From contig RGZB01000011.1 in assembly GCA_010031735.1 (NCBI GenBank), forward strand, positions 1 to 53,868: a stretch of 53,868 nucleotides of DNA. Direction: 5' to 3'. The DNA is from Pseudomonadota bacterium (GTDB lineage Bacteria > Pseudomonadota > Alphaproteobacteria > Rickettsiales > RGZB01). Shown in pieces: positions 8,666-41,710 of the stretch. The translations under genes and the position numbers were made by a program. Numbering within the stretch: position 1 is the stretch's first letter; each line of letters opens with the position of its first letter. The notes under the pieces are model-generated. The model saw only the letters and a program-made list of their open reading frames with translations, did no database searches and was not told where the DNA came from.

Positions 8666-8735
8666 ACCTGACTCCCTATGTATTGGAAGAACAGTGTAGC
8701 GTTTTTTTTAGGTTAAATAAAGGGGTAGGGGGGAG

Positions 8736-8744
8736 TTATCCACA
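8736..8744 (+). other. Perfect DnaA box TTATCCACA
   Basis: Exact match to the consensus DnaA box, lying in the leader of the first RTX gene. It is single and not in an AT-rich cluster, so it does not mark an origin. DnaA could act here as a transcription factor, or the match may be chance. Confidence 0.35.
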
Positions 8745-8822
8745 GATTTCCAGTAAGCGTGGCAAAAATGTATGGTGCCTAGAAAGTGGTCTTGCTACGG
8801 ATAAAACCGCTGCATGCAAAAA

Positions 8823-8846
8823 GGGCGCTCCCGTGAAGGAGCGCCC
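8823..8846 (-). terminator. Rho-independent terminator of the second RTX gene
   Basis: GGGCGCTCC (8823-8831) pairs with GGAGCGCCC (8838-8846) around a 6-base loop. Read on the minus strand the stem is followed by five T. It lies 28 bases after the RTX stop codon and separates the two RTX genes into different transcripts. Confidence 0.9.
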
Positions 8847-8873
8847 CGTTTGTTTGATATTGTCTAGTGTTAA

Positions 8874-11177
8874 CTAGGCAATCTGTGTTACATCGCCTGC
8901 ATCGAGGTCAGCGATCGAGACACCTTGCAGCGTCACGAGGTCGATAACCGTAGCAGCAGCCGTCGTAGAGACGTTGCCGCCGAGTACGACTGCAGCAACG
9001 TTCACGCCACCAGAGGTGTTAGCGTAAGCAACGAGGAACGTATCGCCAGCGGTAGACGTACCGTTGCCGATGGTGCCGATAGACGAACCACCCGTCAGGA
9101 GCAGATCGTCGAAGGCGGCAGCGTTCGCATACGTACCGAACGTGAATTTCACGATTTCGGTGCTCGTAGCTGCGTTCCATGCGCCAGCAGAAGCAACCGT
9201 TTGGAACGTCAGGGTGTTTGCACCGGTGAAGTTCGCAGTTGCGTTCGCAGCATCCACAGAAACCATACGCGTGATGTTCGCGCCTGAACCTTCGAGGTCA
9301 GACTCGTCGATCGCGAGCGTATCAGCCGTGTTAGCGTTGAAGTCAGTGACGAGGAGGATCGCACCTTCATCTTGTACAACGATCGTGTCGTTGCCAGAGC
9401 CGGAGGTGATGGTATCCACTACGTGGTCAGCAGAACCCGATTCGACACCGCGGATGAAGTCTGCACCAGCACCGCCGCTGATGCTGTCCGCACCATCGTT
9501 ACCGGTGATCGTGTCAGAACCCGTGCCGCCGATGATCGTATCAGCGCCAGAGCTACCGAGGAGCGTACCGTTGACACCGTCAGCGATACCGATTTTGCTA
9601 GCACCACCGAGGGTCACAGTGCCAGAACCCGCAACTTTCACCAGGTTTGCAGAGTTCACTGCAGTCGTGGTGGCGGTCAGGGTAAATGCACCGTTCTCGA
9701 GAGAGAGCAGGTGGTTATCAGAAGCATTCACTACGTCATCACCGAGGGTGATCGTGGAGTTGCCCGTGAAGGAGATCGCATCGATGCCCGTTACGTTAAC
9801 GAGGTCAGCAGCCACTACCGTACCGCTGTCCAGAGCCAGGGTATCAGAACCCGTGCCGCCGGTGAATACGTCGTTGTCTGCGTTCAGGTTAGCGATCGTT
9901 TCTACGATACGGTCATCACCTGCACCTGCAATCACGGTGTCTTTATCAGAACCGCCGGTGATGGTGTCGTTACCAGCACCGCCATCGATCACATCGAGAC
10001 CAACAGAGTTGGTGATGCTGTCGTTGCCGTCGCCGCCGAATACCGTGTCGTTACCAGCAGCAGATACGATCGTATCGTTGCCAGCGCCGCCATCGATGGT
10101 TTCGTTGCCCGCACCACCCGTGATGGTGTCAGCGCCGATACCACCTTGCAGGTAGTTCAAGCCGGTACCACCCGTGATGCTGTCATCGCCCGCACCGCCG
10201 TGGATCGTGTCGTCGCCCGAACCACCGGTGATGGTGTCGTTACCTTCGTTACCGAAAGCGAGCATGTTACCAGCGTGGGTGTTCGATGCACCGTTGATGG
10301 AGTCATCGCCTGCACCGCCGAGAACCGTTACGCGATCCGTAGCAGCACCCGCTTCGAGGGTGATACGGTCATCGCCAACGCCACCTTCAACGGAGTCATT
10401 GTCGCCGACAGACGTGATGCTGTCGTTGCCTTGACCGCCGTACAGGTAGTCGCGACCAGCAGAACCCACGAGGGAGTCATTGCCTGCGTTACCTTGGAAG
10501 TTCACGCCGTCAACCGTGTCAGAGAGAGCCGCACCAGAGAGCGTATCTGCATCGTCACCACCTTGAGCGGTGATGCTGTCAGCCGTAGAAGCGGTGTTCG
10601 TGCCAACGATCGTGTCAGAACCAACGCCACCTACGATGGAGTCGATGCCGCCGCCAGCGTTGATGCTGTCGTCGCCTTGACCACCGAATACCGTGTCGTT
10701 ATCCGCACCAGCGTCGATAGAGTCGTTGCCAACGTTGCCTTCGAGGCGATCGTTGCCAGCACCACCGGAGATGGTATCAGCACCGTCGTTACCGAATACT
10801 TTATCGTTGCCGCTGCCCGCCGTTACGTTATCACCACCACCAAGACCTTGGTAGTAGTCAGAACCGCCGGTGAGGGTTACGGTGTTGCCGATATCGTCGA
10901 TTAACGTACCAGAAGAATCATCACCGAACGTTACGATGCCGAAGCTCGTAGCTTGACCAGCAACGGTGAAGTTGCCTTTCGCGAGCGCCGCGAGCGTGAT
11001 GCCCGTGAGCGTTACGCTGCCAGTAGCAGCCGTAATCACCACGTTCGCACCGCTTTGCGCGATCGTCAGGCTGTTCGGCAGAATCACCTGATTGTTCGCC
11101 ACGTCGAAGTTCAGAATATCGCTAGTCGTGAAAGCGACGGACGTGCCTTTTACAGCAGAAAAATTAAAAGTAGCCAT
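8874..11177 (-). CDS. Large RTX calcium-binding repeat protein, possibly S-layer-like
   Basis: 767 residues, almost entirely Gly/Asp/Asn-rich RTX nonapeptides (about 105-425 and a shorter array near 550-600) between an Ala/Thr/Val-rich N-terminal region and a beta-rich C-terminal region without cysteine. No signal peptide; the C-terminus should carry the type I secretion signal. Codon choice is strikingly uniform (repeated GGT, AAC, GAC, ACC), more so than in the first RTX gene, which is common for abundant proteins. Size and composition resemble RTX surface-layer proteins such as RsaA, but no direct family match is claimed. AAGGGG precedes the ATG; the gene has a strong terminator of its own. 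Confidence 0.88.
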   Translation of the reverse strand: MATFNFSAVKGTSVAFTTSDILNFDVANNQVILPNSLTIAQSGANVVITAATGSVTLTGITLAALAKGNFTVAGQATSFGIVTFGDDSSGTLIDDIGNTVTLTGGSDYYQGLGGGDNVTAGSGNDKVFGNDGADTISGGAGNDRLEGNVGNDSIDAGADNDTVFGGQGDDSINAGGGIDSIVGGVGSDTIVGTNTASTADSITAQGGDDADTLSGAALSDTVDGVNFQGNAGNDSLVGSAGRDYLYGGQGNDSITSVGDNDSVEGGVGDDRITLEAGAATDRVTVLGGAGDDSINGASNTHAGNMLAFGNEGNDTITGGSGDDTIHGGAGDDSITGGTGLNYLQGGIGADTITGGAGNETIDGGAGNDTIVSAAGNDTVFGGDGNDSITNSVGLDVIDGGAGNDTITGGSDKDTVIAGAGDDRIVETIANLNADNDVFTGGTGSDTLALDSGTVVAADLVNVTGIDAISFTGNSTITLGDDVVNASDNHLLSLENGAFTLTATTTAVNSANLVKVAGSGTVTLGGASKIGIADGVNGTLLGSSGADTIIGGTGSDTITGNDGADSISGGAGADFIRGVESGSADHVVDTITSGSGNDTIVVQDEGAILLVTDFNANTADTLAIDESDLEGSGANITRMVSVDAANATANFTGANTLTFQTVASAGAWNAATSTEIVKFTFGTYANAAAFDDLLLTGGSSIGTIGNGTSTAGDTFLVAYANTSGGVNVAAVVLGGNVSTTAAATVIDLVTLQGVSIADLDAGDVTQIA

Positions 11178-13232: not shown

Positions 13233-14039
13233 ATGGCAGATTTTTCACTCCTAGCGCATGAACACTCCAACCGTACGCGCGCGCTCAGCGCGAGTGCAAA
13301 CATTTATCTCTCTTCCGGCATTATGCTGCCGCTCACGCGGTACCGTGACGATGTTGATTTCATCCTGCGCACCACATCTGAACTGGCGCAGAGTCTTGAG
13401 GTGCTCGCGAACCGAGCGTGGGAGCTTGAGCGTAACCCAGCCGGGATTGGATATGCGGATAAAGAGCGTGAGCGCGGGGTGGATGCGATCGCGAATCTCT
13501 GCCGCAGGGAGTTTGCCCGCACGATTTCGCGTTGCAACACCGTTAGCAATAAGATGATGATCGATTTCCTGGAAGGTATGGTGAACCTTGGCGAGGAAGA
13601 GGTTTGGCAGGAACGGCCGGATGTGCGGGGACTCTTAAGCGAGCGCGCAAGCAACATCCTGGCATTCAACGACACGCTTTTCGACAGGTTCGCCGAACTG
13701 ATCGATCCTTCCCTGATCCCGTTGCTCGATCAAGAGGCGCCGCAAGCCTTGATGAACACGAGCCAGCAGGTGGCGAACTTTATCATGCTGAACCTGAGTG
13801 CGAGCATCTTCGGTGCGGTGATGCAGCCAGTCGATTTCCGCCAGCTCGACAACAGCGAAGCAATCGCAGCGCATTGTGTGGGGCTGTATCTTTACGGTGC
13901 TGCACAGAATGGCCCTTACGGCCTCAATGCGACATTCCGTGAGTTCAGGGATGCACACGTCGCCTGGCGCAAAGAGCGCGGGATCAACGATAGCAGGCCC
14001 GACCTGCCGGATGACGATGAGGGACAGAGGGCGCGTTAG
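13233..14039 (+). CDS. Hypothetical protein under a CtrA-type promoter
   Basis: 268 residues, no family recognised. Mostly helical, soluble, without signal peptide. Arg/Glu-rich helices fill the first half (a long helix around 45-110), hydrophobic helices the middle (around 180-200, NFIMLNLSASIFGAVM), and the C-terminal 30 residues are charged and probably disordered (DDDEGQRAR). The ATG at 13233 lies directly behind GGAAGG, too close for normal Shine-Dalgarno use, and the -10 is six bases upstream: a leaderless start is the best reading. It ends three bases before the convergent ileS. Function unknown. Confidence 0.7.
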   Translation: MADFSLLAHEHSNRTRALSASANIYLSSGIMLPLTRYRDDVDFILRTTSELAQSLEVLANRAWELERNPAGIGYADKERERGVDAIANLCRREFARTISRCNTVSNKMMIDFLEGMVNLGEEEVWQERPDVRGLLSERASNILAFNDTLFDRFAELIDPSLIPLLDQEAPQALMNTSQQVANFIMLNLSASIFGAVMQPVDFRQLDNSEAIAAHCVGLYLYGAAQNGPYGLNATFREFRDAHVAWRKERGINDSRPDLPDDDEGQRAR

Positions 14040-20705: not shown

Positions 20706-21824
20706 ATGGCGACAGAAAAATCCATAACCCCAGAGCAAAGACTCCCCGGCCGGGGTACCCCCCGGCGGGAAGCGGAAACGCATTTCGCGCCGGTGATAAG
20801 TAAAGGCAAGCTCGTGATCTTCGCAACGGGCAGGGGCAAAAACCCCCCACGTAAAGCTTTCGATACCGGTATCGAGGCGGAGGATGAGGCGTCAACCGCC
20901 AAACTCGATCCCGTTGCCTTAGCGAATCTGCTCGAGGATAAACTCGGCCACCTGACGCTTGAATCTTCCGATCTTGAACCTAAAACTTCGGAACGGATGA
21001 TCCATTACATGCTTGCCAAAAAAATGGACTTTCCCTTGCGCCTACTCGACCGCGCCTTCAAGGATAGCGTGGTTTCCCTGCGCGATATCGAATTCACCCA
21101 TAACCGTTCGGCAGGTACCGTTCGGCAGAACCAGATCATTCGTGTGCGCTATCGTGAGCGGGAGGGATTAAAAGATGCAGGCAAGGATCACACGCTCGTG
21201 CGCAGTTTCGGGGTCGAGAGCATCGATGAGAACACCCAACAGCTGATCGCCCGTGCGATTGCAGCAAAAATGTATAAGGCCCTCAAGAAAACGGTGACAT
21301 TCAGCACCGAGGAATTCAAAGCACTCGTCGAGGGTGTGATTGCAGGCCACAAGCAACATTATGAAGCAGACCGCAGTTCCACCCGCAAGATCGATATCGA
21401 TCCGAAGAAGGTGGCGATCGGCCCGCTCACGCTGATGGGCCCGTATTTCTCCCCCGTCTCTCAGATCCTGCGAGTAGAGTTCCGCATCAAGCACACGGTG
21501 GACAATGATTCGCAATTCTTCTTCCGCGTGGACCGCAGCCTTGGAAGAAGGATGGGCCCTGAAGGCGAATACCCGGATGTGCCCGCTTGGATGCGCGACC
21601 GGATTGAGCGTGCTTTCGGGCGGCTTGAGCAAGCGCTCGGCACATTCGTGAAGGAATATGGCCTCGAACAGGAGACAAGGCCGTTTGCGACCTTGCAATC
21701 AGAGGGTGGAACAGCGTATAAACTCGCCAAAGAATCCGACAAGGTGCTGTTTGAAGACATTGCCATGGACACCTTGGTGCTGGTGAAAACCCGAATGACC
21801 CGAAGAAAAGGACCATCGAAATAG
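20706..21824 (+). CDS. Hypothetical protein encoded just before valS
   Basis: 372 residues, no family recognised, no signal peptide. A disordered basic N-terminus (about 1-75) is followed by two similar-looking alpha/beta modules. The first has QIIRVRYRERE, a strand (LVRSFGVESID) and a helix (QQLIARAIAAKMYKAL); the second has QILRVEFRIKH, FFFRVDRSL and a helix (MRDRIERAFGRLEQAL). This suggests internal duplication. There is no Shine-Dalgarno before the ATG. The stop lies three bases before valS, so the two are co-transcribed from the CtrA-box promoter at 20659-20684. Function unknown. Confidence 0.72.
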   Translation: MATEKSITPEQRLPGRGTPRREAETHFAPVISKGKLVIFATGRGKNPPRKAFDTGIEAEDEASTAKLDPVALANLLEDKLGHLTLESSDLEPKTSERMIHYMLAKKMDFPLRLLDRAFKDSVVSLRDIEFTHNRSAGTVRQNQIIRVRYREREGLKDAGKDHTLVRSFGVESIDENTQQLIARAIAAKMYKALKKTVTFSTEEFKALVEGVIAGHKQHYEADRSSTRKIDIDPKKVAIGPLTLMGPYFSPVSQILRVEFRIKHTVDNDSQFFFRVDRSLGRRMGPEGEYPDVPAWMRDRIERAFGRLEQALGTFVKEYGLEQETRPFATLQSEGGTAYKLAKESDKVLFEDIAMDTLVLVKTRMTRRKGPSK

Positions 21825-21827
21825 CGT

Positions 21828-24407
21828 ATGAAGGCATTACCCGAACGTTACGATCATAAGGAATCCGAAGCACGCTGGCAGAAGACGTGGGTCGAACAGA
21901 AGACCTATGCGTGGAAGAACGATAAGTCGCGTGATCAGACATTCGTGATCGATACGCCACCCCCGACGGTGTCCGGCATCCTGCACATGGGCCATATCTT
22001 CAGCTACACGCAGGCGGATTTCGTAGCGCGCTACCAACGCATGAAGGGCAAAGACGTGTTCTACCCGATGGGTTTCGACGATAACGGGCTTCCGACCGAA
22101 CGCCTCGTCGAGAAAGAAAAGAAGATACGCGCCACCGATTTCATCAAGGAAAAAGGCCGCGAAGGATTCATCGCACTCTGCCAGGAAGTGGTGAAGGATG
22201 CGGAGGAAGAATTCCGCAGGTTATTTAAATCCGTCGCGCTCTCGGTCGACTGGGATCAGGAATATCAAACTATTTCCGAAGAATCGCGAAAGATCTCGCA
22301 GATGAGTTTCCTCGATCTGTTCCACAAGAACGAGGCCTACCGCAAGCTGCAACCGATGCTGTGGGACCCGGTGGACCAGACCGCGATCGCACAGGCGGAG
22401 GTGGTCGATAAAGAACTGCCGAGTGCCGAAAACTACATCGTATTTGGTTTGGTCGATAAAAAGACCGGCGCGAAAGCGGGTGACGTGCTGATCATGACCA
22501 CGCGACCGGAATTACTGCCGGCGTGTGTGGCGGTGATGTGCGATCCTTCCGATGAGCACAAATATACGAATTTCGATGCGATGACGCCGCTCTTCGGTGT
22601 GCGCGTGCCCATCATCGCGGATGAAAAAGTCGATAAGGAAAAAGGTACCGGTGTCGTGATGTGCTGTACCTTCGGCGACGAGACCGACATCCATTGGTGG
22701 AAGAAACATAATCTCAACACGAAGATCGTGCTCAACAAATACGGCAAGCTGGATGAAGTAGCACTTGTGGATGCATTGAAAGACGGTGATGCATCGCTCA
22801 TTGCCGAAATCAAAAACAAGAAATGCTACAACCCCGACCCGAAAAACTTCGGCGCGCGTGAGACCTTGCTCGCGAAACTGAAGGAGGCGGGACTGCTCAA
22901 AGAACAAAAACCGATCACGCACGCGGTGAAATGCGCGGAGCGTTCCGGTGCGCCGCTTGAGATATTGCCGACGCACCAATGGTTCGTGAAAGTGCTCGAC
23001 AAGAAAGAGGCGCTCAAAGCGAAAACCAATGCATGCGAATGGTTCCCGGAATTCATGAAGCTCCGCTGCGAACAGTGGATCGATGGCCTGTCGTGGGATT
23101 GGTGCATCTCTCGCCAGCGTTATTTCGGCGTGCCGTTCCCGGTGTGGTATTCGAAACGTTCCGGTGAGGAAGGAAAAATCCTGGTGCCGGATATCGACCA
23201 GTTGCCGGTGAACCCGATCAAAGACTTGCCGAAGGGATATACGAAGGATGAAGTCGAGCCCGATATGGACGTGATGGACACGTGGGCGACGTCGTCCGTA
23301 TCGCCGCAACTCTCCGCGGGTGGCATCAACAAGGATTACATGACGCCGCGCGGTGCCAAAGACAACCGCTTTGCAAAACTTTTCCCTGCCGATATGCGCC
23401 CGCAGGCGCATGAGATCATCCGCACATGGGCGTTCTACACGATCGTGAAGGCGCATCTGCATGAGAACGCCATCCCGTGGAAGAACCTGATGATCTCCGG
23501 CTGGTGTCTGGCCGCGGATAAAACCAAGATGAGCAAATCGAAGGGTAACGTCATCACGCCGGTGGACCTGATCGAGAGCAAAGGTTCCGACGCGGTGCGT
23601 TACTGGGCATCGACCTCGCGTCTTGGCGCCGATACGGCCTTCTCGGAAGATGTTTTGAAAATCGGTAATAAACTCGTCACCAAACTCTGGAACGCGACGA
23701 AGTTCGCGAGCATCCAATTTTCGCATCTGAAATCCGAACCGAGTAGCGCCGCGGAAGAAGTGAAGAGCGGCATCATCACCGAGACGCTCGATAAATGGAT
23801 TCTCTCGCGTCTTTCCGAGACGATCCACAAAGCGGATACGGAATTCGCCCGCTTCGAATATTGCGATGCGCGTGTTGCCATCGACGATTTCTTCTGGAAA
23901 GATTTCTGCGACAACTATCTCGAGATGGTGAAGATTCGTGCCTACGGTGGTGAAGGCATTTCCGAGAAAGCGCAGATGAGTGCCGTGCATACGGTCTATC
24001 ACTGTGTGGAAGCGATCCTGCGTCTTTACGCGCCGTTCGTGCCGCATATCACGGAAGAACTCTACAGCCACATTTTCGATGCCAAACACGCGAAGGTGAA
24101 AAGCATCCACGCGCGCGGCAACTGGCCGGACGCGAAACACTATCCCGTGGATGTGATCGCACGCGATGCGGGCATCTTATCCGTCGAAGTGCTGGAGACG
24201 GTGCGCCGGTTGAAAGCGGAGAAGAACGTCTCGCTCAAATGGCCGCTCACCGAACTGCGCATACGCGGCAACGAAGCGCTCCTTAAAGGTGCGGCGGAAG
24301 ATCTACGCCAGGTGACGAACGCTGCAAAGATCGTGGTAGCGGAAGGTGAACTGAGCGTCGATGCGGACTTCGCGGCCGAGAGCGACCAGAAGACGGCGGA
24401 AGCTTAG
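21828..24407 (+). CDS. valS: Valyl-tRNA synthetase, archaeal-type
   Basis: 859 residues. It charges tRNA-Val. The HIGH motif is TPPPTVSGILHMGHIFSYTQ (about 43-62), the editing domain has MTTRPELLPAC, and KMSKSKGN is intact. It lacks the C-terminal coiled-coil arm of typical bacterial ValS (about 950 residues). The TPPPTVSGxLHMGH form and the shorter length match the archaeal-type enzyme known from Rickettsia and some other alphaproteobacteria, regarded as an old lateral acquisition. It begins three bases after the upstream unknown gene, and its stop overlaps that of the convergent gene at 24404. Confidence 0.97.
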   Translation: MKALPERYDHKESEARWQKTWVEQKTYAWKNDKSRDQTFVIDTPPPTVSGILHMGHIFSYTQADFVARYQRMKGKDVFYPMGFDDNGLPTERLVEKEKKIRATDFIKEKGREGFIALCQEVVKDAEEEFRRLFKSVALSVDWDQEYQTISEESRKISQMSFLDLFHKNEAYRKLQPMLWDPVDQTAIAQAEVVDKELPSAENYIVFGLVDKKTGAKAGDVLIMTTRPELLPACVAVMCDPSDEHKYTNFDAMTPLFGVRVPIIADEKVDKEKGTGVVMCCTFGDETDIHWWKKHNLNTKIVLNKYGKLDEVALVDALKDGDASLIAEIKNKKCYNPDPKNFGARETLLAKLKEAGLLKEQKPITHAVKCAERSGAPLEILPTHQWFVKVLDKKEALKAKTNACEWFPEFMKLRCEQWIDGLSWDWCISRQRYFGVPFPVWYSKRSGEEGKILVPDIDQLPVNPIKDLPKGYTKDEVEPDMDVMDTWATSSVSPQLSAGGINKDYMTPRGAKDNRFAKLFPADMRPQAHEIIRTWAFYTIVKAHLHENAIPWKNLMISGWCLAADKTKMSKSKGNVITPVDLIESKGSDAVRYWASTSRLGADTAFSEDVLKIGNKLVTKLWNATKFASIQFSHLKSEPSSAAEEVKSGIITETLDKWILSRLSETIHKADTEFARFEYCDARVAIDDFFWKDFCDNYLEMVKIRAYGGEGISEKAQMSAVHTVYHCVEAILRLYAPFVPHITEELYSHIFDAKHAKVKSIHARGNWPDAKHYPVDVIARDAGILSVEVLETVRRLKAEKNVSLKWPLTELRIRGNEALLKGAAEDLRQVTNAAKIVVAEGELSVDADFAAESDQKTAEA

Positions 24408-24946
24408 GCCGGACTGAGGTCGTCTGGGCCTTGCTCGCGTGAGATCAGGTTCAGGTACGCATCGGAGATACGCCCCTCGATCATTTTTCCGTGTGTCTGG
24501 ATGCCCGGATGATAGGTGCGCGGATCGGGCATCGGTTCACCGCCATCGCCCGGATCGATATCGGGGTATTCATCATCTTCGATATAACCGCCGATCACAT
24601 GTTTATCGAGCTCGAGTGTGAGTGCATGGGCCTCTATATCCGGCACATAAAACAGCAACACCGGCATATTGGATGGATCGCGCATCACACCGCGTACGAC
24701 TTCGACGGACGCCGCTTCCTCACCCTGGCCTTTCGACCACGACCAACTGTTCGGATCGGACTGTATCATCGGTTCAAAGCCGCAGGCTTTTAAAGGTACA
24801 TCCATGATCTGGCTTGGGGGTAGATCAGTGATGATGCGGATCACGATCTCGCCGGGCGTTACTTCGGCACGTCCCTCATCATCCCGCGTGTACGAGATCA
24901 TGCTCTTGCCGCGCGTCACCCCACCGTTCATATAGAATCGTAACAT
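24404..24946 (-). CDS. Hypothetical protein next to a CtrA-type box
   Basis: 180 residues, no family recognised. The ATG at 24946 has GGGGAA about 7 bases upstream; a GTG six bases earlier would be too close to it. No signal peptide. The N-terminal 120 residues look like an alpha/beta domain (strands EIVIRIITDL, SVEVVRGVM, VLLFYVPDIEA, ALTLELDKHVIGG). An acidic, Asp/Pro-rich linker (about 125-145) and a short helix end the protein. The CtrA box at 24991-25005 lies about 45 bases upstream. Its stop overlaps the end of valS by three bases in convergent orientation. Function unknown. Confidence 0.68.
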   Translation of the reverse strand: MLRFYMNGGVTRGKSMISYTRDDEGRAEVTPGEIVIRIITDLPPSQIMDVPLKACGFEPMIQSDPNSWSWSKGQGEEAASVEVVRGVMRDPSNMPVLLFYVPDIEAHALTLELDKHVIGGYIEDDEYPDIDPGDGGEPMPDPRTYHPGIQTHGKMIEGRISDAYLNLISREQGPDDLSPA

Positions 24947-24990
24947 GCACACTTCCCCATCGTTACAAGGTCAGGGTACCATGGGATTCG

Positions 24991-25376: not shown

Positions 25377-26426
25377 TTAACCAAGCTCGCGGCCTTCTTG
25401 CTGACGAAGCGCAGTATATACGGTGCTGAAGAGGGTATCTCGCCTGAACGTACTTTCCGGAAAATGTTCTGCAAGCAAAGTCTTTACGGCTGCAGAGAGA
25501 TGTTCTTCCTGTTTATATTTTGCTTTCAGCGTGGATGGCGTTGCATGTAGTTCGAAGGCTGCCACCAATTCATTGGTTAGTTTCTTTACTGCGTCATCGT
25601 TATCGATATGTTCGGCGACGATCGAGGTGATACGCTCTTTCAGGTGGTCTGCCTCTGCGCGGGTGCGGAGTTTGCTATAGCCATCGATGAAATCCATTAT
25701 CTTCATGTTCTGGATCGTCGGAGAGATCACGGGCGGAGAACGCTCGAATTCGTTCTGTATCACACGCAGATCCTGTGCCAGTCGTCTATAGAGTATGTCG
25801 GGATTCATGCCATCCGGCACTTCGAGATAGAGCACATCCGAGCCTGCCCACATAGCGCCGTAGCCGGGTATCTGACGCATGGTGGTGAATCCTTCGGCTC
25901 GGTATTTTGCTTGCAGATGGTTCATGAGGTAGAATGCCGGTATGGCTTTTTCCCGATCTGCCTCGCTACCAAAGGTATCATGTGTTCCATCTGCACGAAT
26001 GTTTTCTTGCGTAGCAGAGAATGGCTGCTGAGCAGCATCAAAACCGATGTAGTATTTAGCAGGTATACTGTGAGATTTTTGTGGCACCGAAAGTGATACT
26101 TCTATTTTCATCTCTACTTGCGTTTTATCGGGGCGCACGAATACCGTGCGTATATATTCGGAAATACTTCCCGCGGGATCGAACCGCAAGTCGCCTTTAC
26201 TGAAATCATCCTCCGGGGCGATCGGTTCACCCGAAAGATAGGTGCGCGGAGGTTGTGTCATGGCCGGAAGTTTTTCGAATACGTCCTTGGGTGCAGGAAT
26301 ATCATCATCCGTTAGGTTGAATATGGCGTCGTCTGCCTGGTTCCTGCGTGCAGAAGAAGAGAAGGTTGCGGCGATCTTGTCCCACATGCCTTTCCACCAC
26401 TCACCCCATCCGCTGAAGAATCCCAT
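25377..26426 (-). CDS. Hypothetical protein, paralogue of the upstream gene
   Basis: 349 residues, no family recognised. It starts with an amphipathic Trp/Gly-rich segment (MGFFSGWGEWWKGMWDKIA), then a linker, then a strand-rich region (EYIRTVFVRP, VEMKIEVSLSVP, KYYIGFDAAQQPF), a helix (FYLMNHLQAKYRAEGF) and a C-terminal helical domain (about 235-345). The same order of elements is found in the gene just upstream (26426-27325): IRVRI, TTVEIQVRLNQP, AVFVRAGLQNVDAAHRPIS, a helix ending KLEALGY, and a C-terminal helical part. The two are diverged tandem copies. Start and stop overlap in TAATG, so translation is coupled. Confidence 0.72.
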   Translation of the reverse strand: MGFFSGWGEWWKGMWDKIAATFSSSARRNQADDAIFNLTDDDIPAPKDVFEKLPAMTQPPRTYLSGEPIAPEDDFSKGDLRFDPAGSISEYIRTVFVRPDKTQVEMKIEVSLSVPQKSHSIPAKYYIGFDAAQQPFSATQENIRADGTHDTFGSEADREKAIPAFYLMNHLQAKYRAEGFTTMRQIPGYGAMWAGSDVLYLEVPDGMNPDILYRRLAQDLRVIQNEFERSPPVISPTIQNMKIMDFIDGYSKLRTRAEADHLKERITSIVAEHIDNDDAVKKLTNELVAAFELHATPSTLKAKYKQEEHLSAAVKTLLAEHFPESTFRRDTLFSTVYTALRQQEGRELG

Positions 26427-27325
26427 TAGCGCCGACCTACCTGCGGGAAGCGGACGATGGTCAGGAAATCCGCGATCGCACTGGTGGAGATGCGCTCCAT
26501 CTCAGGCCTATCCGGATGGTCCTTTAAGATAGGATGCTCCTCGAACAAATTGTATACGGCACGGCCGAGTTGGCCACCATCTTGGTAGCGCTCGACCTGT
26601 ACACCCGGATCGACGATCTGCGGCCTGCCCTGTGCTTCGAAGACGAGAATCAACCTTTCGGTGAGGTCCCTTAACGTGCTGCCTTCCATATCGAAACGCA
26701 TGAGATCGCCCGCGATGCGGTTGGTAAGACTGGTTTCGTGATCGGGATGCATCGCGATACGCCGGGCATGGTCGGTGCGGTAAAAGGCCTCGCCGATAAT
26801 ATGCTGTGTTGCGATAGGGGTGCGGCTTGCCTCGTTTTCGATGGCGCGGAGTACACCCACCACTTGCGTAAAGGCTTCATCGGCATAGAGCGCGCGGGGG
26901 TGGGTGAGCAGCATTTGGTTTTGACTAAAGGGAGCAACACCGGAATTGATCGATGCCTGATCAGGCATAACGAAGGCAATCTGGTATCCTAGGGCTTCGA
27001 GTTTTGCCCCCAAGATGCTTATGACATCCGCGGCTAAGGCAGTCTTACGCAAATCGGGCGTATCGGCGCGATTGTGAAGTTCATCGTTTCCCGAGATGGG
27101 GCGATGCGCGGCATCCACATTCTGCAAACCGGCACGTACGAACACGGCGTTCTTATACTCCGAACCCTGCGCGCGTTCATTCGGTTGGTTGAGCCGCACC
27201 TGGATCTCGACAGTTGTGAAGATAGGCTCTTCGCTGCCGGGTGGGTGGATACGCACTCGGATGAACTCCGCATGCTCCCGCACCGGAGGATGGAAGAACT
27301 GGCTGAAGGACTTTCGTATACCCAT
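26426..27325 (-). CDS. Hypothetical protein, first of a tandem paralogous pair
   Basis: 299 residues, no family recognised, no signal peptide. It starts MGIRKSFSQFFHPP, followed by strands FIRVRIHPPG and TTVEIQVRLNQP, AVFVRAGLQNV, a helix with DVISILGAKLEALGY, and a C-terminal helical half (LTNRIAGDLMRF, LRDLTERLILVFEAQG, LGRAVYNLFEEHP) that matches the layout of its neighbour. The promoter is a CtrA-type box with TATTCT only nine bases from the ATG and no Shine-Dalgarno, so a leaderless message is likely. Together with 25377-26426 it forms a two-gene unit. Function unknown. Confidence 0.72.
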   Translation of the reverse strand: MGIRKSFSQFFHPPVREHAEFIRVRIHPPGSEEPIFTTVEIQVRLNQPNERAQGSEYKNAVFVRAGLQNVDAAHRPISGNDELHNRADTPDLRKTALAADVISILGAKLEALGYQIAFVMPDQASINSGVAPFSQNQMLLTHPRALYADEAFTQVVGVLRAIENEASRTPIATQHIIGEAFYRTDHARRIAMHPDHETSLTNRIAGDLMRFDMEGSTLRDLTERLILVFEAQGRPQIVDPGVQVERYQDGGQLGRAVYNLFEEHPILKDHPDRPEMERISTSAIADFLTIVRFPQVGRR

Positions 27326-27334
27326 AGGCTTTTA

Positions 27335-27366
27335 AGAATAACAGTCCTTGATTAACAAATGGTTAA
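27335..27366 (-). promoter_or_regulatory. CtrA-type promoter of the tandem pair
   Basis: TTAA-N7-TTAA at 27352-27366; on the minus strand 11 bases, then TATTCT (27335-27340), nine bases before the ATG at 27325. Its inner 16 bases, TTAACCATTTGTTAAT, are identical to those of the box at 38955. Confidence 0.75.
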
Positions 27367-27375
27367 ACCATCTGG

Positions 27376-27418
27376 TTCCACTTTTAGGCTTGCGAAAAGG
27401 ATGATTGTTGCTTAAAGA
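27376..27418 (+). promoter_or_regulatory. Predicted argG promoter with upstream element
   Basis: TTGCGA (27390-27395), 17 bases, TAAAGA (27413-27418). Immediately upstream is TTCCACTTTT (27376-27385), which with GCTTGC is also found before atpH. The CtrA box for the divergent unit ends 9 bases upstream and might affect argG too. Confidence 0.55.
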
Positions 27419-27446
27419 GAGCGTTTCCAAACAAGAGGCACGCGCT

Positions 27447-28664
27447 ATGGCACAGAAAAAAACATCCTCCAAGGGCATCAAAAAAGTCGTTCTCGCGTAT
27501 TCCGGCGGGCTTGATACCTCCATTATCCTGCACTGGCTGAAAGAGCACTATAACTGCGAGATCGTGACGTTCACGGCGGATCTCGGCCAAGGGGGTGAAC
27601 TCGAATCCGCGCGCCGCAAAGCCAAACGCATGGGTATCAAAGAAATCTATATCGAGGACCTCCGCGAAGAATTCGTGCGTGATTACGTGTTCCCGATGTT
27701 CCGCGCCAACACCGTATATGAAGGCCAATACCTGCTCGGTACCTCCATCGCCCGGCCGCTGATCGCCAAACGCCAAGTGGAAATCGCGATTGAAACCGGT
27801 GCCGACGCGGTATCGCACGGTGCTACCGGTAAGGGTAACGACCAGGTGCGTTTCGAACTCGGCTATTATGCCCTGAAACCGGACATCAAAATCATCGCGC
27901 CGTGGCGCGAATGGGACCTCGCTTCCCGTACCCGTCTGCTGCAATATGCACGCGAACGCCAGATCGAGATCCCGCGCGATAAAGAGAACGAGCCGCCGTA
28001 TTCAACGGATGCGAACCTGCTCCACATCTCCTATGAAGGCCGCGTGCTCGAGGATCCGTGGAAAGCGCCGCCGGAAGATATGTTCACCCGTTCCGTCTCT
28101 CCGGAGAAAGCGCCGAACAAACCCGAGGTCATCGAAATCGATTTCGCCAAAGGCGATCCGGTCGCGATCAACGGCAAGAAACTCTCGCCGGCCGCACTCC
28201 TCACCAAACTCAATGAACTGGGTGGCAAACACGGTATCGGTCGCTTGGACATCGTCGAGAACCGGTATGTCGGCATGAAATCCCGTGGTGTCTATGAAAC
28301 GCCGGGTGGTACGATCCTCTTGGACGCACACCGTGCGATCGAAAGCATCACGCTCGACCGTGAAGCGATGCACCTGAAAGACGAGCTGATGCCTAGGTAC
28401 GCGAAACTCATCTACAACGGTTACTGGTGGTCACCGGAACGTCGTATGCTGCAATCCGCGATCGATCTTTCACAGGCCAATGTCACCGGTACGGTACGTC
28501 TGAAACTCTACAAAGGCGGCATCACCGTGCTTGGCCGTAAATCACCGAAGAGCATCTACAGCCAAGAGCATGTGACGTTCGAGGAAGATTCCGTTTACGA
28601 TCAACGGGATGCACAGGGTTTCATCAAATTGAATGCCCTCCGTCTGCGCCTTGCCCGTAAATAG
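27447..28664 (+). CDS. argG: Argininosuccinate synthase
   Basis: 405 residues, typical length. It joins citrulline and aspartate using ATP, the penultimate step of arginine synthesis. The ATP-pyrophosphatase P-loop is AYSGGLDTS (about 16-24). [15 protein letters not shown] and the C-terminal [15 protein letters not shown] are conserved. The start at 27447 is chosen because AAGAGG lies about 9 bases upstream and the conserved domain begins soon after; an in-frame start 42 bases upstream adds a poorly conserved extension. It is a single-gene unit here; argH is not adjacent. Confidence 0.97.
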
Positions 28665-28684: not shown

Positions 28685-28716
28685 CTAACCAATCGTTAAC
28701 CTTTACACTCTATACT
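28685..28716 (+). promoter_or_regulatory. CtrA-type promoter of the paralogue triplet
   Basis: CTAA-N7-TTAAC (28685-28699), one mismatch to the box consensus, then 11 bases and TATACT (28711-28716). The gene at 28743 starts about 20 bases after the expected transcription start. Confidence 0.68.
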
Positions 28717-28742: not shown

Positions 28743-29327
28743 ATGGCAACGAACGGTCGTTTAGCGGGAGAAAAGCAAAAGGTGCTCACGCACCTCCGGC
28801 TTCTGCTTGACCGCAATGCGGAGGGAGTTACGGCTCCAGATGCTCCGCCCACCTCTTCGGTCACCCGCCATGACGGATGGTTCGAGATCGATGCCGAATC
28901 TCCTCGGATGCGTTATGCGCATGTGGCGCCTGAAATCTTGGTACGAGCGCTTGCACACCTTCTCGATATCGAATTCGTCGAAGGTGAAAGACTCCATCGT
29001 CGTATCGAGGATCATGAACGCACAGCAGAATGCGAACCCGAAGATGCGCGTCTTTATGTCATCTCCCATGGAGCAATGGCGCTCGACATGCGCCCGACGC
29101 CGGGCGGGACACGGACGCAAATCTATCTACCGGACAGCTTGTTCACGAGCCCGTTTGCCATCGAAGCGTTGACGGAAGTAAGTTGCGCAGCGCTCGATGC
29201 TGCAGTGGATCGTATCGCACACTGGACCAAACATCACCCGCATGAAGAGTGGACGGAGCGTCGCGCTAAACGGGGTGAAAGAGGCGCTACGTCGCGTGGT
29301 GGTGACAACCCCCCGTTTATTAGGTAG
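28743..29327 (+). CDS. Hypothetical protein, paralogue triplet member 1
   Basis: 194 residues, no family recognised, no signal peptide. N-terminal helix VLTHLRLLLDRNAEG, then a linker, the motif DGWFEIDAESPR, a helix ILVRALAHLLDIEF, a charged helix, and a strand TQIYLPDSLFTSP. The same order and motifs (L..LLDR, [WG]FEI, helix ending in a hydrophobic pair, IYLP/ILVS/LIIP strand) recur in the next two genes, so the three are diverged tandem duplicates. The last 30 residues are basic and Gly-rich. Six bases plus a Shine-Dalgarno separate it from member 2. Function unknown. Confidence 0.72.
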   Translation: MATNGRLAGEKQKVLTHLRLLLDRNAEGVTAPDAPPTSSVTRHDGWFEIDAESPRMRYAHVAPEILVRALAHLLDIEFVEGERLHRRIEDHERTAECEPEDARLYVISHGAMALDMRPTPGGTRTQIYLPDSLFTSPFAIEALTEVSCAALDAAVDRIAHWTKHHPHEEWTERRAKRGERGATSRGGDNPPFIR

Positions 29328-29336
29328 GGGCGCTTG

Positions 29337-29948
29337 ATGCAAATAAACAAACACGTCCTCTTGAAATTACGCGAACTGCTCGACAGGGCGGATTCACCGC
29401 TTGATATCTATCTTCCGCAGGTGATGGATGGGTCGGTAAAGGACCGGACGAAACTCGAACATGACACAGCGCTCGGTATAGAAGACCTGCGCCCAGTAGG
29501 TCAGCTGCGGTCTTCGGTGGGCCGCACCGATAATTGGTTTGAAATTCATCCCACCTCTCCGTATTGCCGGCATCGATTGGAAAATCCACTGGTGGTAGCG
29601 GGGGCCTTGTGCACCCTGCTTCACGTATTTTTGTCGCACGACCAAGCTTTGAAAGAAGTGATTGCCGGGCATGCAGCAGCGTTAGGTATCTCGCTTGAAC
29701 AAGCGCGCGTCGATGAGATCGGACTACGTACTAACATGGGTGCGATCATGCTCGAGACCACCAATATGCAAGGTCAAACCCGCGCACTTCCGAAGATCCT
29801 GGTGAGCGAACGTCTCTTCATGACCGAGACGGAAAAAGAAACCGATGCATACAGGCGATTGATGAACATCACGCCGCTCGAGATGGTGAATACGGTGGAG
29901 GGCTTGAGGGCTCGCTTCAAAGGCAGGCCGGAAAGAGGGCAAGGATAA
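29337..29948 (+). CDS. Hypothetical protein, paralogue triplet member 2
   Basis: 203 residues, no family recognised. The ATG at 29337 is preferred to the TTG at 29334 because AGGGG lies six bases before it. It has VLLKLRELLDRADSP, TDNWFEIHPTSPY, the helix VVAGALCTLLHVFLSH, a helix KEVIAGHAAALGISLEQARV and the strand PKILVSERLFMTE, in the same order as its neighbours. It ends in an Arg/Gly-rich tail. Its stop overlaps the next start as TAATG, so translation is coupled to member 3. Function unknown. Confidence 0.72.
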   Translation: MQINKHVLLKLRELLDRADSPLDIYLPQVMDGSVKDRTKLEHDTALGIEDLRPVGQLRSSVGRTDNWFEIHPTSPYCRHRLENPLVVAGALCTLLHVFLSHDQALKEVIAGHAAALGISLEQARVDEIGLRTNMGAIMLETTNMQGQTRALPKILVSERLFMTETEKETDAYRRLMNITPLEMVNTVEGLRARFKGRPERGQG

Positions 29949-30616
29949 TGCCGCTACTCACACCCTACATACGCATCTTCGAGAAGCTGAGCGAATTGTT
30001 CGATCGCGAGCCCGTGAAATTCAATCCCGATGGCAGGCCGGATCCTGGGATGAACGAGCCACTCGACCCGACCGACACCTCGCTTCCGTTTGATTTATCG
30101 GAAGACCATGTGCGCGCAAAAGAGCTGAACAGTGTACTGATAGGTCCCTATGTCGCGGGTGATGAACCGGATATCATCGTCGGCTACAACCCCAACCATG
30201 CAGACGATGACCAAAGCACGGTTTCCTGCCGTGACTACGGATTCGAGATACATCTCCGGCGACCTTGTTCTGAATTGAACGGTTACCCCGCAGAGGCCAT
30301 CGGATATGCACTCGCCAACCAACTTGGCATACCGTTCCGCACCTCAGCGGAACTCGATCAGATGATAAGGGATCAAAGGATGCTCCGCGGCAACATCAAT
30401 GCGAGCCAGGCACGGCTGGAGTTGTTCGAGGCAGAGTGTGCCATCCTTCAGCATGAACGTCAGGCGGGCGTGCTCATCATACCCGATGTGGTGGTGCAAC
30501 ACGTGCTCTATGCCGATAATCGTCTGCACACGATCGATCGCGCAGAATTCATCCGCTCCGTAGGACAACGTGCGCAAGAGATGAGAGATACGCGCGGTGG
30601 GCCGTTCGTCGGCTAA
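29948..30616 (+). CDS. Hypothetical protein, paralogue triplet member 3
   Basis: 222 residues, no family recognised. It begins IRIFEKLSELFDREP, has a longer Pro/Asp-rich insertion (about 25-50), then CRDYGFEIHLRRPC, the helix AIGYALANQLGIPF, ELDQMIRDQRMLRGNINASQ and strand GVLIIPDVVVQHVL, matching members 1 and 2 in layout though with low identity. AAGGA precedes the start, which overlaps the previous stop by one base. The gap to the J-domain gene is 43 bases with no terminator seen, so read-through into that gene is likely. Function unknown. Confidence 0.72.
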   Translation: MPLLTPYIRIFEKLSELFDREPVKFNPDGRPDPGMNEPLDPTDTSLPFDLSEDHVRAKELNSVLIGPYVAGDEPDIIVGYNPNHADDDQSTVSCRDYGFEIHLRRPCSELNGYPAEAIGYALANQLGIPFRTSAELDQMIRDQRMLRGNINASQARLELFEAECAILQHERQAGVLIIPDVVVQHVLYADNRLHTIDRAEFIRSVGQRAQEMRDTRGGPFVG

Positions 30617-30659: not shown

Positions 30660-31244
30660 ATGCAGCAGAAACGGAACCGCAAGAAATCCAAGAAGCAAGA
30701 GCCTAAACCCACCCATCCGTGTGAATGGGAAGGATGTACGCTCATGGGGGAATTCCGTGCCCCGAAAACCCGGGTACGCGATGACGGTACGCGTCCGGAA
30801 TATTATTGGTTCTGCTTAGAGCATGTGCGCGAATACAACGCCAAATGGGATTATTTCAAAGGACTGACGGAAGCCGAAGCCCTCCATTTCCAAAAAGAAG
30901 CGGTGCACGGGCATCGCCCGACCTGGAAGACGACCGACCGTGTGGCAAAGAACGTGCAGAAATTGCGCGAGGCAGTGGAGCGTTTCAGTGGCGGCTTCAG
31001 CCACTTCGGAACGCAGAAAAAAGAACGCAGTGAAAGTCGGCCGATCTCGAGCGAAGAAAAGCGATCGATGGAAACCCTCGGGCTTTCCTATCCGGTGACG
31101 CTTAAGGAAATCAAACGGCGCTATAAAGAACTCGTGAAGCAATATCATCCGGATCTAAGCGAAGATAAAGCGCACGCGGAAGAGCGTTTCAAAGATATCA
31201 GCCAGGCTTATCACTATCTCGCCAAATCCGGATTGTTCCAGTAG
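30660..31244 (+). CDS. J-domain protein with N-terminal zinc-finger-like motif (cobS-linked)
   Basis: 194 residues. The N-terminus is strongly basic (KRNRKKSKKQEPKP), followed by CEWEGC...YYWFCLEHVREYN, where the C-x4-C and C-x2-H spacing suggests a zinc site. The C-terminal 70 residues are a J domain with the HPD tripeptide (KQYHPDLSED), which stimulates DnaK ATPase. This architecture and its place before cobS and cobT are conserved in alphaproteobacteria. Here an acyltransferase gene has come between it and cobS. The ATG at 30660 is chosen since the longer frame overlaps the previous gene; its Shine-Dalgarno (GGTGG) is poor. Confidence 0.85.
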   Translation: MQQKRNRKKSKKQEPKPTHPCEWEGCTLMGEFRAPKTRVRDDGTRPEYYWFCLEHVREYNAKWDYFKGLTEAEALHFQKEAVHGHRPTWKTTDRVAKNVQKLREAVERFSGGFSHFGTQKKERSESRPISSEEKRSMETLGLSYPVTLKEIKRRYKELVKQYHPDLSEDKAHAEERFKDISQAYHYLAKSGLFQ

Positions 31245-38954: not shown

Positions 38955-38986
38955 TTAACCATTTGTTAATTCGGTTTTGGTATGCT
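38955..38986 (+). promoter_or_regulatory. CtrA-type promoter of the unknown pair before atp
   Basis: TTAA-N7-TTAA at 38955-38969, 11 bases, TATGCT (38981-38986). AAGGAG follows at about 38992-38997 and the ATG at 39004, leaving a very short leader. The box includes TTAACCAT, the half-site form of CtrA sites. Confidence 0.78.
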
Positions 38987-39003
38987 TTTCGAAGGAGATT
39001 TTC

Positions 39004-40398
39004 ATGACCAAATTTATGGAATTCGCAGCCAGGGTCTTTGAGGGCTGCCTTGAAATGGCAGATGATATTGCGACCGAGATCGAAGGTATACCGGGCTATG
39101 ATATCGGCTTTGAGAACGATGATGCGATACCCGGCGATAATCTGAGCCCCGAAATAGCATCGACAGTTGCAGAACTGATCGAGGGCATTCGCACGGTTAC
39201 ATTCAACGACCGGTCGCCGGTCGCGGCAGAGAATATCATGGTGATTGAGAACACCAATGACTTCCGTTTCTTCGTTCCCGCGGAAGACACCACAGCACTC
39301 GAAAGAATGTATCGTACGGCAAACACTTTGCCCGTGTTTATCGGCAAGGTTCTCGAGGGTATGGAATCCGAAGCAGAAAGTGCGACGGCACGGCCATTTG
39401 TACTGCCTGCGGCCAACCAGGATGCAGCGACGGGGTTCGTGCAGATATTCAGAGCACTCGCAGAATACCACATGTCAGGGCTTACGGATGACGACATCCA
39501 GATTGGAGAGACGGAGGATGATGACGGCACTACGCTCTATACGGTGGTGGTGAAACTACATGTAATGTACGGTATCGCGAGGGAAGAAGGCTGGCTCGAT
39601 AGAGCCAAAGAGCATACCGCTGAGGAAACACTCGTTTTTCCTGCGCCAGAAGTGATCGAGGCAGGTAAGCCGGAGAACATCTTAGAGAAAGCAGCACTCG
39701 TGGCAGGACAGACCTATTTCCATTACGGGCGTGCCGGTAAGAAGCATATGGAGGGCAGCAATCCGTATCAATTGACGGTCGATAACGATAAGTTGTCCGA
39801 AGAACTCGACAAACTTCATATCGATTCTTCGCGCCAAGCGGAAGCAGTCGCCAAAGTGCTCGCATGCGCGATGGCAGTGTTGCTACAGAAAGATGAAGAC
39901 TGGTTGAAAAAGACGCATCCAAAAATGTGGAAGGCGAAATCAGAAGATATCTACCGCTTCACGCTGCCTACTTCAGAACTCGCCACCGTGAAGAATACAT
40001 ACGAAACGATCGCTAAGCTCTGTCACACGTTGCTTGATACGTTGCCCGGTGATCCAGGCTATGCGCGTAGGGACGAACTCTCGACAATCAAATTCGAAGA
40101 TATGGATGCTGCGAAAGCGTGCGGACATCTGCTGTCTGTGCTCTCACACTATTATCACATCGATATCGAAGGTGAGATCAAGGTCGGCACGCTTTCGACA
40201 GGCGAAGGTGTGACGCCCATTATTGAACTCAGCCAACGGAAACTGGCAGAAATATTGGTTGCGGATGGTGTGATGGAAGTCCCCGTAAAACACCTGACGG
40301 AAGGGGAGCGCGAAGCAGTCATCGTCAGCTCGCTCAAACTGCTGAAGCAGTTGATGGAGAAAGAACAGAAAATCGGCAAAAGTAACCTGCGGAATTGA
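39004..40398 (+). CDS. Hypothetical protein with internal duplication
   Basis: 464 residues, no family recognised, no signal peptide, strongly acidic. The ATG at 39004 has AAGGAG seven bases upstream. Two segments about 250 residues apart align by eye: FRFFVPAEDTTALERMYRTA with YRFTLPTSELATVKNTYETI, and IFRALAEYHMSG with LLSVLSHYYHID, each followed by a strand and an ILVADGVM or IAREEGWL helix. This indicates an ancient internal duplication. The following gene, four bases on, shows a weaker resemblance. Driven by a CtrA-type promoter and placed between priA and the atp operon. Function unknown. Confidence 0.72.
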   Translation: MTKFMEFAARVFEGCLEMADDIATEIEGIPGYDIGFENDDAIPGDNLSPEIASTVAELIEGIRTVTFNDRSPVAAENIMVIENTNDFRFFVPAEDTTALERMYRTANTLPVFIGKVLEGMESEAESATARPFVLPAANQDAATGFVQIFRALAEYHMSGLTDDDIQIGETEDDDGTTLYTVVVKLHVMYGIAREEGWLDRAKEHTAEETLVFPAPEVIEAGKPENILEKAALVAGQTYFHYGRAGKKHMEGSNPYQLTVDNDKLSEELDKLHIDSSRQAEAVAKVLACAMAVLLQKDEDWLKKTHPKMWKAKSEDIYRFTLPTSELATVKNTYETIAKLCHTLLDTLPGDPGYARRDELSTIKFEDMDAAKACGHLLSVLSHYYHIDIEGEIKVGTLSTGEGVTPIIELSQRKLAEILVADGVMEVPVKHLTEGEREAVIVSSLKLLKQLMEKEQKIGKSNLRN

Positions 40399-40402
40399 TG
40401 TT

Positions 40403-41710
40403 GTGCCTGAAACCCTCGTCAAACTTGAAAAGGCACTACGCGATAAGATGAAGTCCATCGAAGAACGCGGGGGCGTCACCCTCTCAGCCTCGCGGACCCT
40501 GACACTCGATCTGGCTGAGGAAGAAGGCAAGACGGTATTTGCGATGATAAAGGGTTACTACGCCGCAACCGGAAGGCCAGACCTTGAAGAACAAGTGCGG
40601 TTGCGTTCCAGCGGCGCTAAGACCGATATCGTGATGCCAGTGAATGTGGTGGATACGTATGAACACATGGCGGATATGGTATCGCACACGCGCCAGCTCC
40701 TCAAGATGAGCGATGATCCGCTCGAACGCCTGACTGCAGATACACCCAAAAAGGTGAGCCTAGAATACCCAGAGCGCAAACCACAGGTCGTCAGGGTCGC
40801 AAACGAGACCGAAGCGAATATCGTGCAAGTACTTACTACAACGCTTGCCATGCATCATCAGATACCCATAGAAGACGGAGCGCTTTACACAAAGCAATAC
40901 CCGCAGTCGGATGCAGTGGCGGTGCATCTGAAGGATGAGGTGGTGGATCAAATCCGCCATGCCGACCGCGATCGTGCGAAAGACGGTGAAATCGACCTGA
41001 TGAATTCCGACAGGCATTATCTGCCGTTCAAGGAACCCGTCCTGTTCACTATCGAGCAAGTGCTCGACACCATGCTTGAGATGGGTATCGAGAAGAGCAG
41101 GCGTTTCAGCTTCCCCGTGGCCAATCATGTCCAAGGAAAGATCATCGCAGATATATTCCAGTTCTGTATACCCGTGAAGAAAGGCTATGCGCTCGATATG
41201 AACGATAGCGCGGGTCTGGAGGGAGGCGATCTGCCGGATGGTGCGGTAGCATTCGAAGATCCGCCGGAGCAGGAACCCGAGCGGAGAGAACCCCCGGACA
41301 GTACGTGGAATAGGGTTTCCGCGCATCAGGAACTGGAATTCGCGCAGAAGCAGAATGTGAGGAATATACGCGCACGCTTGTGCCGTATCCGTGACATGCT
41401 TTTCAACAATCCAGAGATGGTTGTGAAGCACGATGACCAGGTCACCCTTCCGATCCGTGGCATGGATATCAGGACCAAGGCGAATCGGGTTCTTACCGAA
41501 CTCGTGAAGGCGCATATCGTGCCGCTGGAATTATATGACGATCTCGACGATAAAATGCCGAAACACGAGAAAAAGACACTGATAGTACCGGCCGATGCCT
41601 ATGAACGCATACGCGAGCGTGAATCCCGCGAGACCCTGAGGGACGTCCTGCAGCAGTATCAGCGCAGCCGGGACCGTGAGGCGGGTAAAGGTTCACCGGA
41701 GCGGAACTAA
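40403..41710 (+). CDS. Hypothetical protein, second gene of the CtrA-box pair
   Basis: 435 residues from a GTG at 40403, four bases after the previous stop; no better start is seen. No family recognised and no signal peptide. The N-terminal helix LVKLEKALRDKMKSIEERGG and the segment VRVANETEANIVQVLTTTLAMHHQ with a strand AVAVHLKDEVVDQI resemble parts of the preceding protein (AANQDAATGFVQIFRALAEYHM, TVVVKLHVMYGIA). A Pro/Glu-rich linker lies near 275-310, and the C-terminus is a long charged helix. It is the last gene before the atp promoter. Function unknown. Confidence 0.7.
   Translation: MPETLVKLEKALRDKMKSIEERGGVTLSASRTLTLDLAEEEGKTVFAMIKGYYAATGRPDLEEQVRLRSSGAKTDIVMPVNVVDTYEHMADMVSHTRQLLKMSDDPLERLTADTPKKVSLEYPERKPQVVRVANETEANIVQVLTTTLAMHHQIPIEDGALYTKQYPQSDAVAVHLKDEVVDQIRHADRDRAKDGEIDLMNSDRHYLPFKEPVLFTIEQVLDTMLEMGIEKSRRFSFPVANHVQGKIIADIFQFCIPVKKGYALDMNDSAGLEGGDLPDGAVAFEDPPEQEPERREPPDSTWNRVSAHQELEFAQKQNVRNIRARLCRIRDMLFNNPEMVVKHDDQVTLPIRGMDIRTKANRVLTELVKAHIVPLELYDDLDDKMPKHEKKTLIVPADAYERIRERESRETLRDVLQQYQRSRDREAGKGSPERN

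What the first reader, a model, noticed from the sequence alone, without database searches (positions are those of the whole stretch)
28743..30616. Three tandem, strongly diverged paralogues of an unknown family
The genes at 28743, 29337 and 29948 share the order: N-terminal L..LLDR/L..LFDR helix, a WFEI or GFEI motif followed by a short turn, a hydrophobic helix, a charged helix, and a late strand (IYLP, ILVS, LIIP). Identity is low but the motifs are in register. They are translationally coupled (TAATG between the last two) and start with a CtrA-type promoter, which suggests the products form one complex. I recognise no family.
Basis: partly seen in the sequence, partly recalled or inferred. 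Interest (0 to 1): 0.72.

Follow-up and report, generated by a model that had tools for sequence, protein, structure and literature searches.

The report
CtrA-promoter operon of three orphan paralogues
Three neighbouring genes really are far-diverged copies of one gene found in no other genome searched, and they belong to a set of about 70 promoters, all of one cell-cycle-regulator (CtrA) type, that mostly drive equally unknown proteins with a shared kind of tail, possibly an export signal.

Summary
The ORFs at 28743-29327, 29337-29948 and 29948-30616 are homologous: g1-g2 BLASTP E 4e-9; a g1+g2 profile ranks g3 first among 395 ORFs of this genome (E 8e-4) and beats 2000/2000 shuffles; hhalign E 4e-4, in register. 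Two AlphaFold models show the same order of elements. No relative turned up in Pfam, NCBIfam, PHROGs, PADLOC, PDB, all 344 held genomes of the order, 385 of the class, or virus, phage and plasmid collections.

The CtrA-type promoter is also real: CTAA-N7-TTAA-N11-TATACT, with one mismatch. This architecture occurs 73 times in the genome (control 1), and a bona fide CtrA is encoded. Its targets are mostly Pfam-less soluble proteins (in the window, 11 of 11 site-linked genes); several targets are other tandem, diverged paralogues.

New here: these proteins, the triplet included, tend to be acidic with short flexible Arg/Gly tails (34/63 versus 38/252 controls). The same holds in two other families of the order (10/13).

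Best reading: a lineage-specific, CtrA-timed operon of small soluble proteins. Export as type IV secretion substrates is my leading but unproven mechanism. That the three form one complex could not be tested.

The parts
28685..28699 (+). CtrA-type full site CTAA-N7-TTAA (one mismatch to TTAA-N7-TTAA)
   Evidence: (19 sites vs 5 expected in the window); promoter class 73 vs 1 control genome-wide
28711..28716 (+). -10 hexamer TATACT, 11 nt after the second TTAA
   Evidence: -10 score peaks only at offset 11 over 56 site-gene pairs
28743..29327 (+). g1, orphan paralogue 1 (194 aa); N-helix, WFEI domain, basic tail SRGGDNPPFIR
29337..29948 (+). g2, orphan paralogue 2 (203 aa from ATG 29337); WFEI domain, tail RPERGQG
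29948..30616 (+). g3, orphan paralogue 3 (222 aa), overlaps g2 in TAATG; GFEI domain, tail TRGGPFVG

Best explanation
A lineage-specific operon of three tandemly duplicated, strongly diverged genes is switched on by CtrA as part of a large CtrA-type regulon. Each product is a small soluble protein: an amphipathic N-terminal helix, a flexible linker, one compact beta-hairpin / three-helix / beta-hairpin / helix domain, and a short flexible Arg/Gly tail. Shown here by computation: the paralogy, the operon layout, the promoter class, CtrA in the genome, the orphan-rich regulon, and the shared tail bias. Inferred: that CtrA binds and activates this promoter, and that the products are made in the CtrA phase (late, motile or dispersal cell). 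My leading mechanism for what they then do is that the basic tail marks them for export by a VirB/D4-like type IV secretion machine, the three being variants or partners of one delivered activity.
For: Paralogy and operon. Promoter: the -10 peak lies only at offset 11; 73 matches versus 1 control in the genome; CtrA at C1:60863 passes its NCBIfam cut-off (394 versus 350 bits); full TTAA-N7-TTAA sites at -35 activate transcription in Caulobacter (PMC4287350). Regulon: 15 of 17 scanned first genes outside the window have no Pfam hit at cut-off (my tally); all 11 site-linked genes in the window lack Pfam, against 2 of 31 others (Fisher 2e-8). Tails: Arg in the last 10 residues is 1.24 versus 0.58 inside the same proteins and 0.69 in control tails; few hydrophobics; acidic bodies; tail signature 34/63 versus 38/252 controls, and in G009/G083 targets 10/13 versus 10/52 local controls. 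Secretion: VirB8 and VirB9 (PF04335 1e-19, CagX 9e-64) lie beside a TTAAN7TTAA site; a cluster of basic residues at the C-terminus can suffice as a type IV signal (PMC3297438).
Against: No VirD4 coupling protein was looked for. The VirB8 promoter side lacks the -10 at offset 11. The tail criterion was set after looking at the tails, and g3's tail is only weakly basic. Some targets (glutamate synthase, PfkB, response-regulator-like proteins) are plainly house proteins, so the regulon is not purely effectors. Flexible basic tails have other uses. The organism's name and lifestyle are unknown. The triplet's site has one mismatch.
Confidence: 0.4

Rival explanations
1. The three proteins stay inside the cell and work as a heteromeric adaptor or regulator of the CtrA phase (division, polarity, motility), joined through their conserved N-terminal helices; the tails are just flexible ends.
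For: Translational coupling, shared N-helix with a hydrophobic face, and a regulon that also holds response-regulator-like and chemoreceptor-like proteins. CtrA regulons elsewhere are rich in genes of unknown function without being effectors (PMC7200025).
Against: Core cell-cycle parts are usually conserved among relatives; this family is in none of the other 343 genomes of the order. It does not explain the tail bias across unrelated orphan families.
Confidence: 0.37
2. The triplet encodes winged-helix DNA-binding proteins (helix, short strand, two helices, two-stranded wing).
For: Order of elements in both models; many of the best Foldseek hits are MarR, PadR or RTP winged helices.
Against: Best E-values 0.06 and 0.3, TM at most about 0.25 and large rmsd: the models do not superpose on that fold. 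No HTH family hit.
Confidence: 0.08
3. Mobile or phage-derived cargo, or a defence or toxin-antitoxin module.
For: Orphan status; a XerC-like integrase 5 kb downstream.
Against: Flanks are argG and a dnaJ-cobS-cobT block; no PHROGs, no significant PADLOC hit, no match in virus, phage or plasmid collections.
Confidence: 0.07
4. Fast-decaying duplicates with no selected function.
For: Weak coding signal and no relatives.
Against: Three intact frames, conserved motifs, predicted folds and a well-placed promoter.
Confidence: 0.05

Closest known systems
CtrA-activated promoters and CtrA regulons of Caulobacter crescentus (PMC4287350) and Hyphomonas neptunium (PMC7200025)
   Same: TTAA-N7-TTAA placed at -35, nearly always intergenic, controlling ctrA, chemotaxis/motility and many genes of unknown function.
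   Different: Here most of the scanned first genes lack any Pfam family, several are tandem diverged paralogues, and the products share acidic bodies with Arg/Gly tails. CtrA binding itself is not shown.
VirB/VirD4 type IV secretion effectors (Agrobacterium, Bartonella, rickettsial rvh; reviewed in PMC3297438)
   Same: Hydrophilic, lineage-specific proteins with a short basic C-terminal tail; VirB8/VirB9 are present in the genome.
   Different: No known delivery domain, no coupling protein tested, no transfer shown; tails are Gly/Arg rich with no single consensus.
Winged-helix regulators (MarR, PadR)
   Same: Order of secondary-structure elements in the core.
   Different: No superposition (TM at most about 0.25) and no sequence match.

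Membership tests
CtrA-activated promoter | TTAA-N7-TTAA full site | tested here: met
   CTAACCAATCGTTAA, one mismatch in the distal half
CtrA-activated promoter | site at -35 with a -10 at fixed spacing | tested here: met
   TATACT at offset 11, the genome-wide peak
CtrA-activated promoter | CtrA encoded in the genome | tested here: met
   NF045991, 394 bits, cut-off 350
CtrA-activated promoter | CtrA binds and activates | not testable with these tools
   needs ChIP or ctrA depletion
Type IV secretion effector (VirB/D4 type) | hydrophilic basic C-terminal tail | tested here: met
   all three pass the tail criteria; criteria were set after the fact
Type IV secretion effector (VirB/D4 type) | type IV machine in the genome, with coupling protein | tested here: inconclusive
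   VirB8 and VirB9 found; VirD4 not sought
Type IV secretion effector (VirB/D4 type) | transfer into another cell | not testable with these tools
   needs a Cre or CyaA fusion assay
Winged-helix DNA-binding protein | winged-helix fold | tested here: not met
   Foldseek best E 0.06/0.3, TM at most about 0.25
Known protein family | match to a curated model or solved structure | tested here: not met
   none in Pfam, NCBIfam, PHROGs, PDB; one weak PADLOC hit for g2 (DruE, E 0.016), taken as chance
Heterotrimeric complex | g1, g2 and g3 bind one another | not testable with these tools
   no multimer prediction offered

The most novel reading that the evidence does not exclude
In this alphaproteobacterial order the CtrA-type promoter marks a large, fast-turning repertoire of exported proteins that share a short Arg/Gly C-terminal signal but little else, and the triplet is one tandem-duplicated example. 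Promoter plus tail would then predict the secreted repertoire of each genome from DNA alone.
Probability: 0.33. Interest if true: 0.82.

Novelty: new variant of a known kind. Interest (0 to 1): 0.57.

Why it matters
Orphan genes are usually hard to approach because nothing ties them together. Here a regulatory signature and a shared tail tie dozens of unrelated orphan families, the triplet among them, into one testable set. If the tail is an export signal, a cell-cycle regulator has been co-opted to time delivery of an effector repertoire. If it is not, a large lineage-specific CtrA programme still awaits a function.

Tried and rejected
- Relatives by sequence: two genome-contig scans, three viral scans, phages, plasmids, order, class: none. 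Marginal profile hits in the order fall in an exonuclease VII large subunit-like protein, a PAS-like protein and a short frame, so chance.
- Synteny: genes upstream of dnaJ in 29 relatives; nothing like the triplet.
- All orphan proteins of the window as one sequence superfamily: all-against-all and profile searches do not join them. My impression of a repeated strand-helix unit stayed unproven.
- Winged helix: only the order of elements fits.
- Dot/Icm system: the gene I first took for DotI is VirB8.

Full report
g1 (28743-29327) and g2 (ATG at 29337, ending 29948) are 9 nt apart with a good Shine-Dalgarno, and g3 (29948-30616) overlaps g2 in TAATG. They sit between argG (27405-28664) and dnaJ-like 30660-31244, an acyltransferase, and CobS/CobT-like genes.

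Are they paralogues? g1-g2 is clear (BLASTP E 4e-9). g3 is distant: BLASTP sees g1-g3 at E 0.005 in register and g2-g3 not at all. A profile from g1+g2 only ranks g3 first of 395 ORFs outside its members (E 8e-4, next 0.16) and above 2000 shuffles of g3; hhalign gives E 4.4e-4 over 118 columns. AlphaFold models of g2 and g3, each with only three sequences, agree on N-helix, disordered linker, hairpin, three helices, hairpin, helix; both used the same three sequences, so this is support, not independent proof. g1 was not modelled.

What family? None: Pfam, NCBIfam, PHROGs and PDB are empty, and PADLOC gives one weak hit for g2 (E 0.016, taken as chance). No relative in all 344 held genomes of the order, 385 of the class, two genome-contig scans, or virus, phage and plasmid collections. 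The own genome has exactly these three copies. The genome is the only one held of its family, so 'orphan' may partly mean 'unsampled lineage'. Foldseek finds no significant match; winged-helix proteins recur among the weak hits but do not superpose.

The promoter opened a wider view. In the window, TTAA-N7-TTAAC with up to one mismatch occurs 19 times against 5 expected, and sites lie upstream of essentially every Pfam-less unit: 1796 (g978), 13195 (g13233), 20659 (g20706), 24991 (g24404), 27352 (g26426/g25377), 28685 (triplet), 38955 (g38977/g40403). In 427 kb of the genome, 44 of 47 exact TTAA-N7-TTAA sites are intergenic. Aligning 56 site-gene pairs, a TATAAT-like hexamer appears only at 11 nt after the second TTAA (mean score +1.5 versus about -3.5 at most other offsets). 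TTAA-N7-TTAA-N11-TANNNT occurs 73 times in the genome, once for the reversed control. CtrA is encoded and has its own TTAAN7TTAA site. In Caulobacter, full sites near -35 mark activated promoters (PMC4287350), so CtrA control is the natural reading; binding is not shown.

What else is behind this promoter? I fetched nearly all sites and listed 72 units. Of 17 first genes outside the window tested in Pfam, 15 have no hit at cut-off (my tally); within the window 11 of 11 site-linked genes have none against 2 of 31 others (of those two, 19431 is probably not a gene and 49241 was tested in NCBIfam only; argG was counted as known without a scan). Tandem diverged paralogues recur: C1:132951/133995 (phmmer 9e-18), C3:25377/26426 (9e-7), C25:36994 genes 2 and 3 (9e-4), and at least three small lipoproteins at C173:17713 (to 2e-15). 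The pair at 25377/26426 is also found only in this genome among 175 of the order. Two distant families of the order show the same promoter (50 and 36 matches, controls 0). Some targets are shared: a 106-aa protein (C184:12863) with relatives behind the same promoter in both (9e-14, 2e-19), and a glutamate-synthase-like protein with one in G009. Most are not: 7 of 10 scanned targets there have no Pfam hit at E 0.01. So there is a small shared core and a large changing periphery; the triplet belongs to the periphery. That CtrA regulons are rich in unknown genes is known (PMC7200025); the degree here is striking.

The tails. Regulon proteins are acidic overall (-1.6 versus +0.4 per 100 aa) but end in short Arg/Gly-rich, hydrophobic-poor tails. 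For one gene per unit, Arg in the last ten residues is 1.24 versus 0.58 inside the same proteins; control proteins show no such Arg rise. A simple tail signature is met by 34/63 regulon first genes and 38/252 controls (p 9e-10), and by 10/13 complete targets of the two other families against 10/52 neighbouring ORFs there. All three triplet proteins meet it. I set the signature after seeing tails, and some control ORFs may not be genes, so it needs a pre-set test. A cluster of basic residues at the C-terminus is a known minimal signal for VirB/D4 secretion (PMC3297438), and VirB8/VirB9 lie beside a TTAAN7TTAA site. From this I commit to export as the most likely mechanism, at about 0.4, with an intracellular heteromeric role close behind. 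Paralogy, orphan status and promoter class I hold at about 0.9.

Limits: organism and lifestyle are not named by the tools; the order's genome list and a DUF2671 gene suggest a Rickettsiales-like alphaproteobacterium, which is inference. No expression, binding, complex or secretion data exist here.

Noticed in passing
window 25377-27325 (-): Second orphan paralogue pair (349 and 299 aa, BLASTP 9e-7), own CtrA-type promoter at 27335-27366, found only in this genome among 175 of the order.
   Followed up: yes
window 38955-41710 (+): CtrA-type promoter followed by two Pfam-less proteins (473 and 435 aa) with repeated strand-helix-looking stretches.
   Followed up: partly
window 978-1745, 13233-14039, 20706-21824, 24404-24952: Four further Pfam-less genes directly behind TTAAN7TTAA sites.
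   Followed up: partly
G000:C1:60863-61627: CtrA (NCBIfam 394 bits), with its own TTAAN7TTAA site, divergent from a FliI-like gene.
   Followed up: yes
G000:C1:41684-43258: VirB8 and VirB9 genes beside a TTAAN7TTAA site; the exact promoter pattern points the other way, to a 1395-aa protein with an apparent signal peptide.
   Followed up: partly
G000:C173:17713 onward: Tandem small putative lipoproteins sharing QGW.DGC-like motifs, at least three significantly related, behind one CtrA-type promoter.
   Followed up: no
G000:C184:12863; L156; L167: Small protein conserved behind the CtrA-type promoter in three families of the order: a candidate core member of the regulon.
   Followed up: partly
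G000:C47:4179-4196, C206:3979, C230:8835, C58:22338: Regulon proteins that by eye resemble deaminases, asparaginases and a phosphoribosyltransferase; not tested beyond Pfam on the last one (no hit).
   Followed up: no
window 51793-53802 (-): 669-aa protein matching ankyrin-repeat protein models, all far below their cut-offs.
   Followed up: no
window 6776-11177 (-): Two large RTX calcium-binding repeat proteins in tandem.
   Followed up: no
G000:C58:16424-16460: Three overlapping TTAAN7TTAA sites in a row before a 1422-aa orphan protein with repeated domains.
   Followed up: partly
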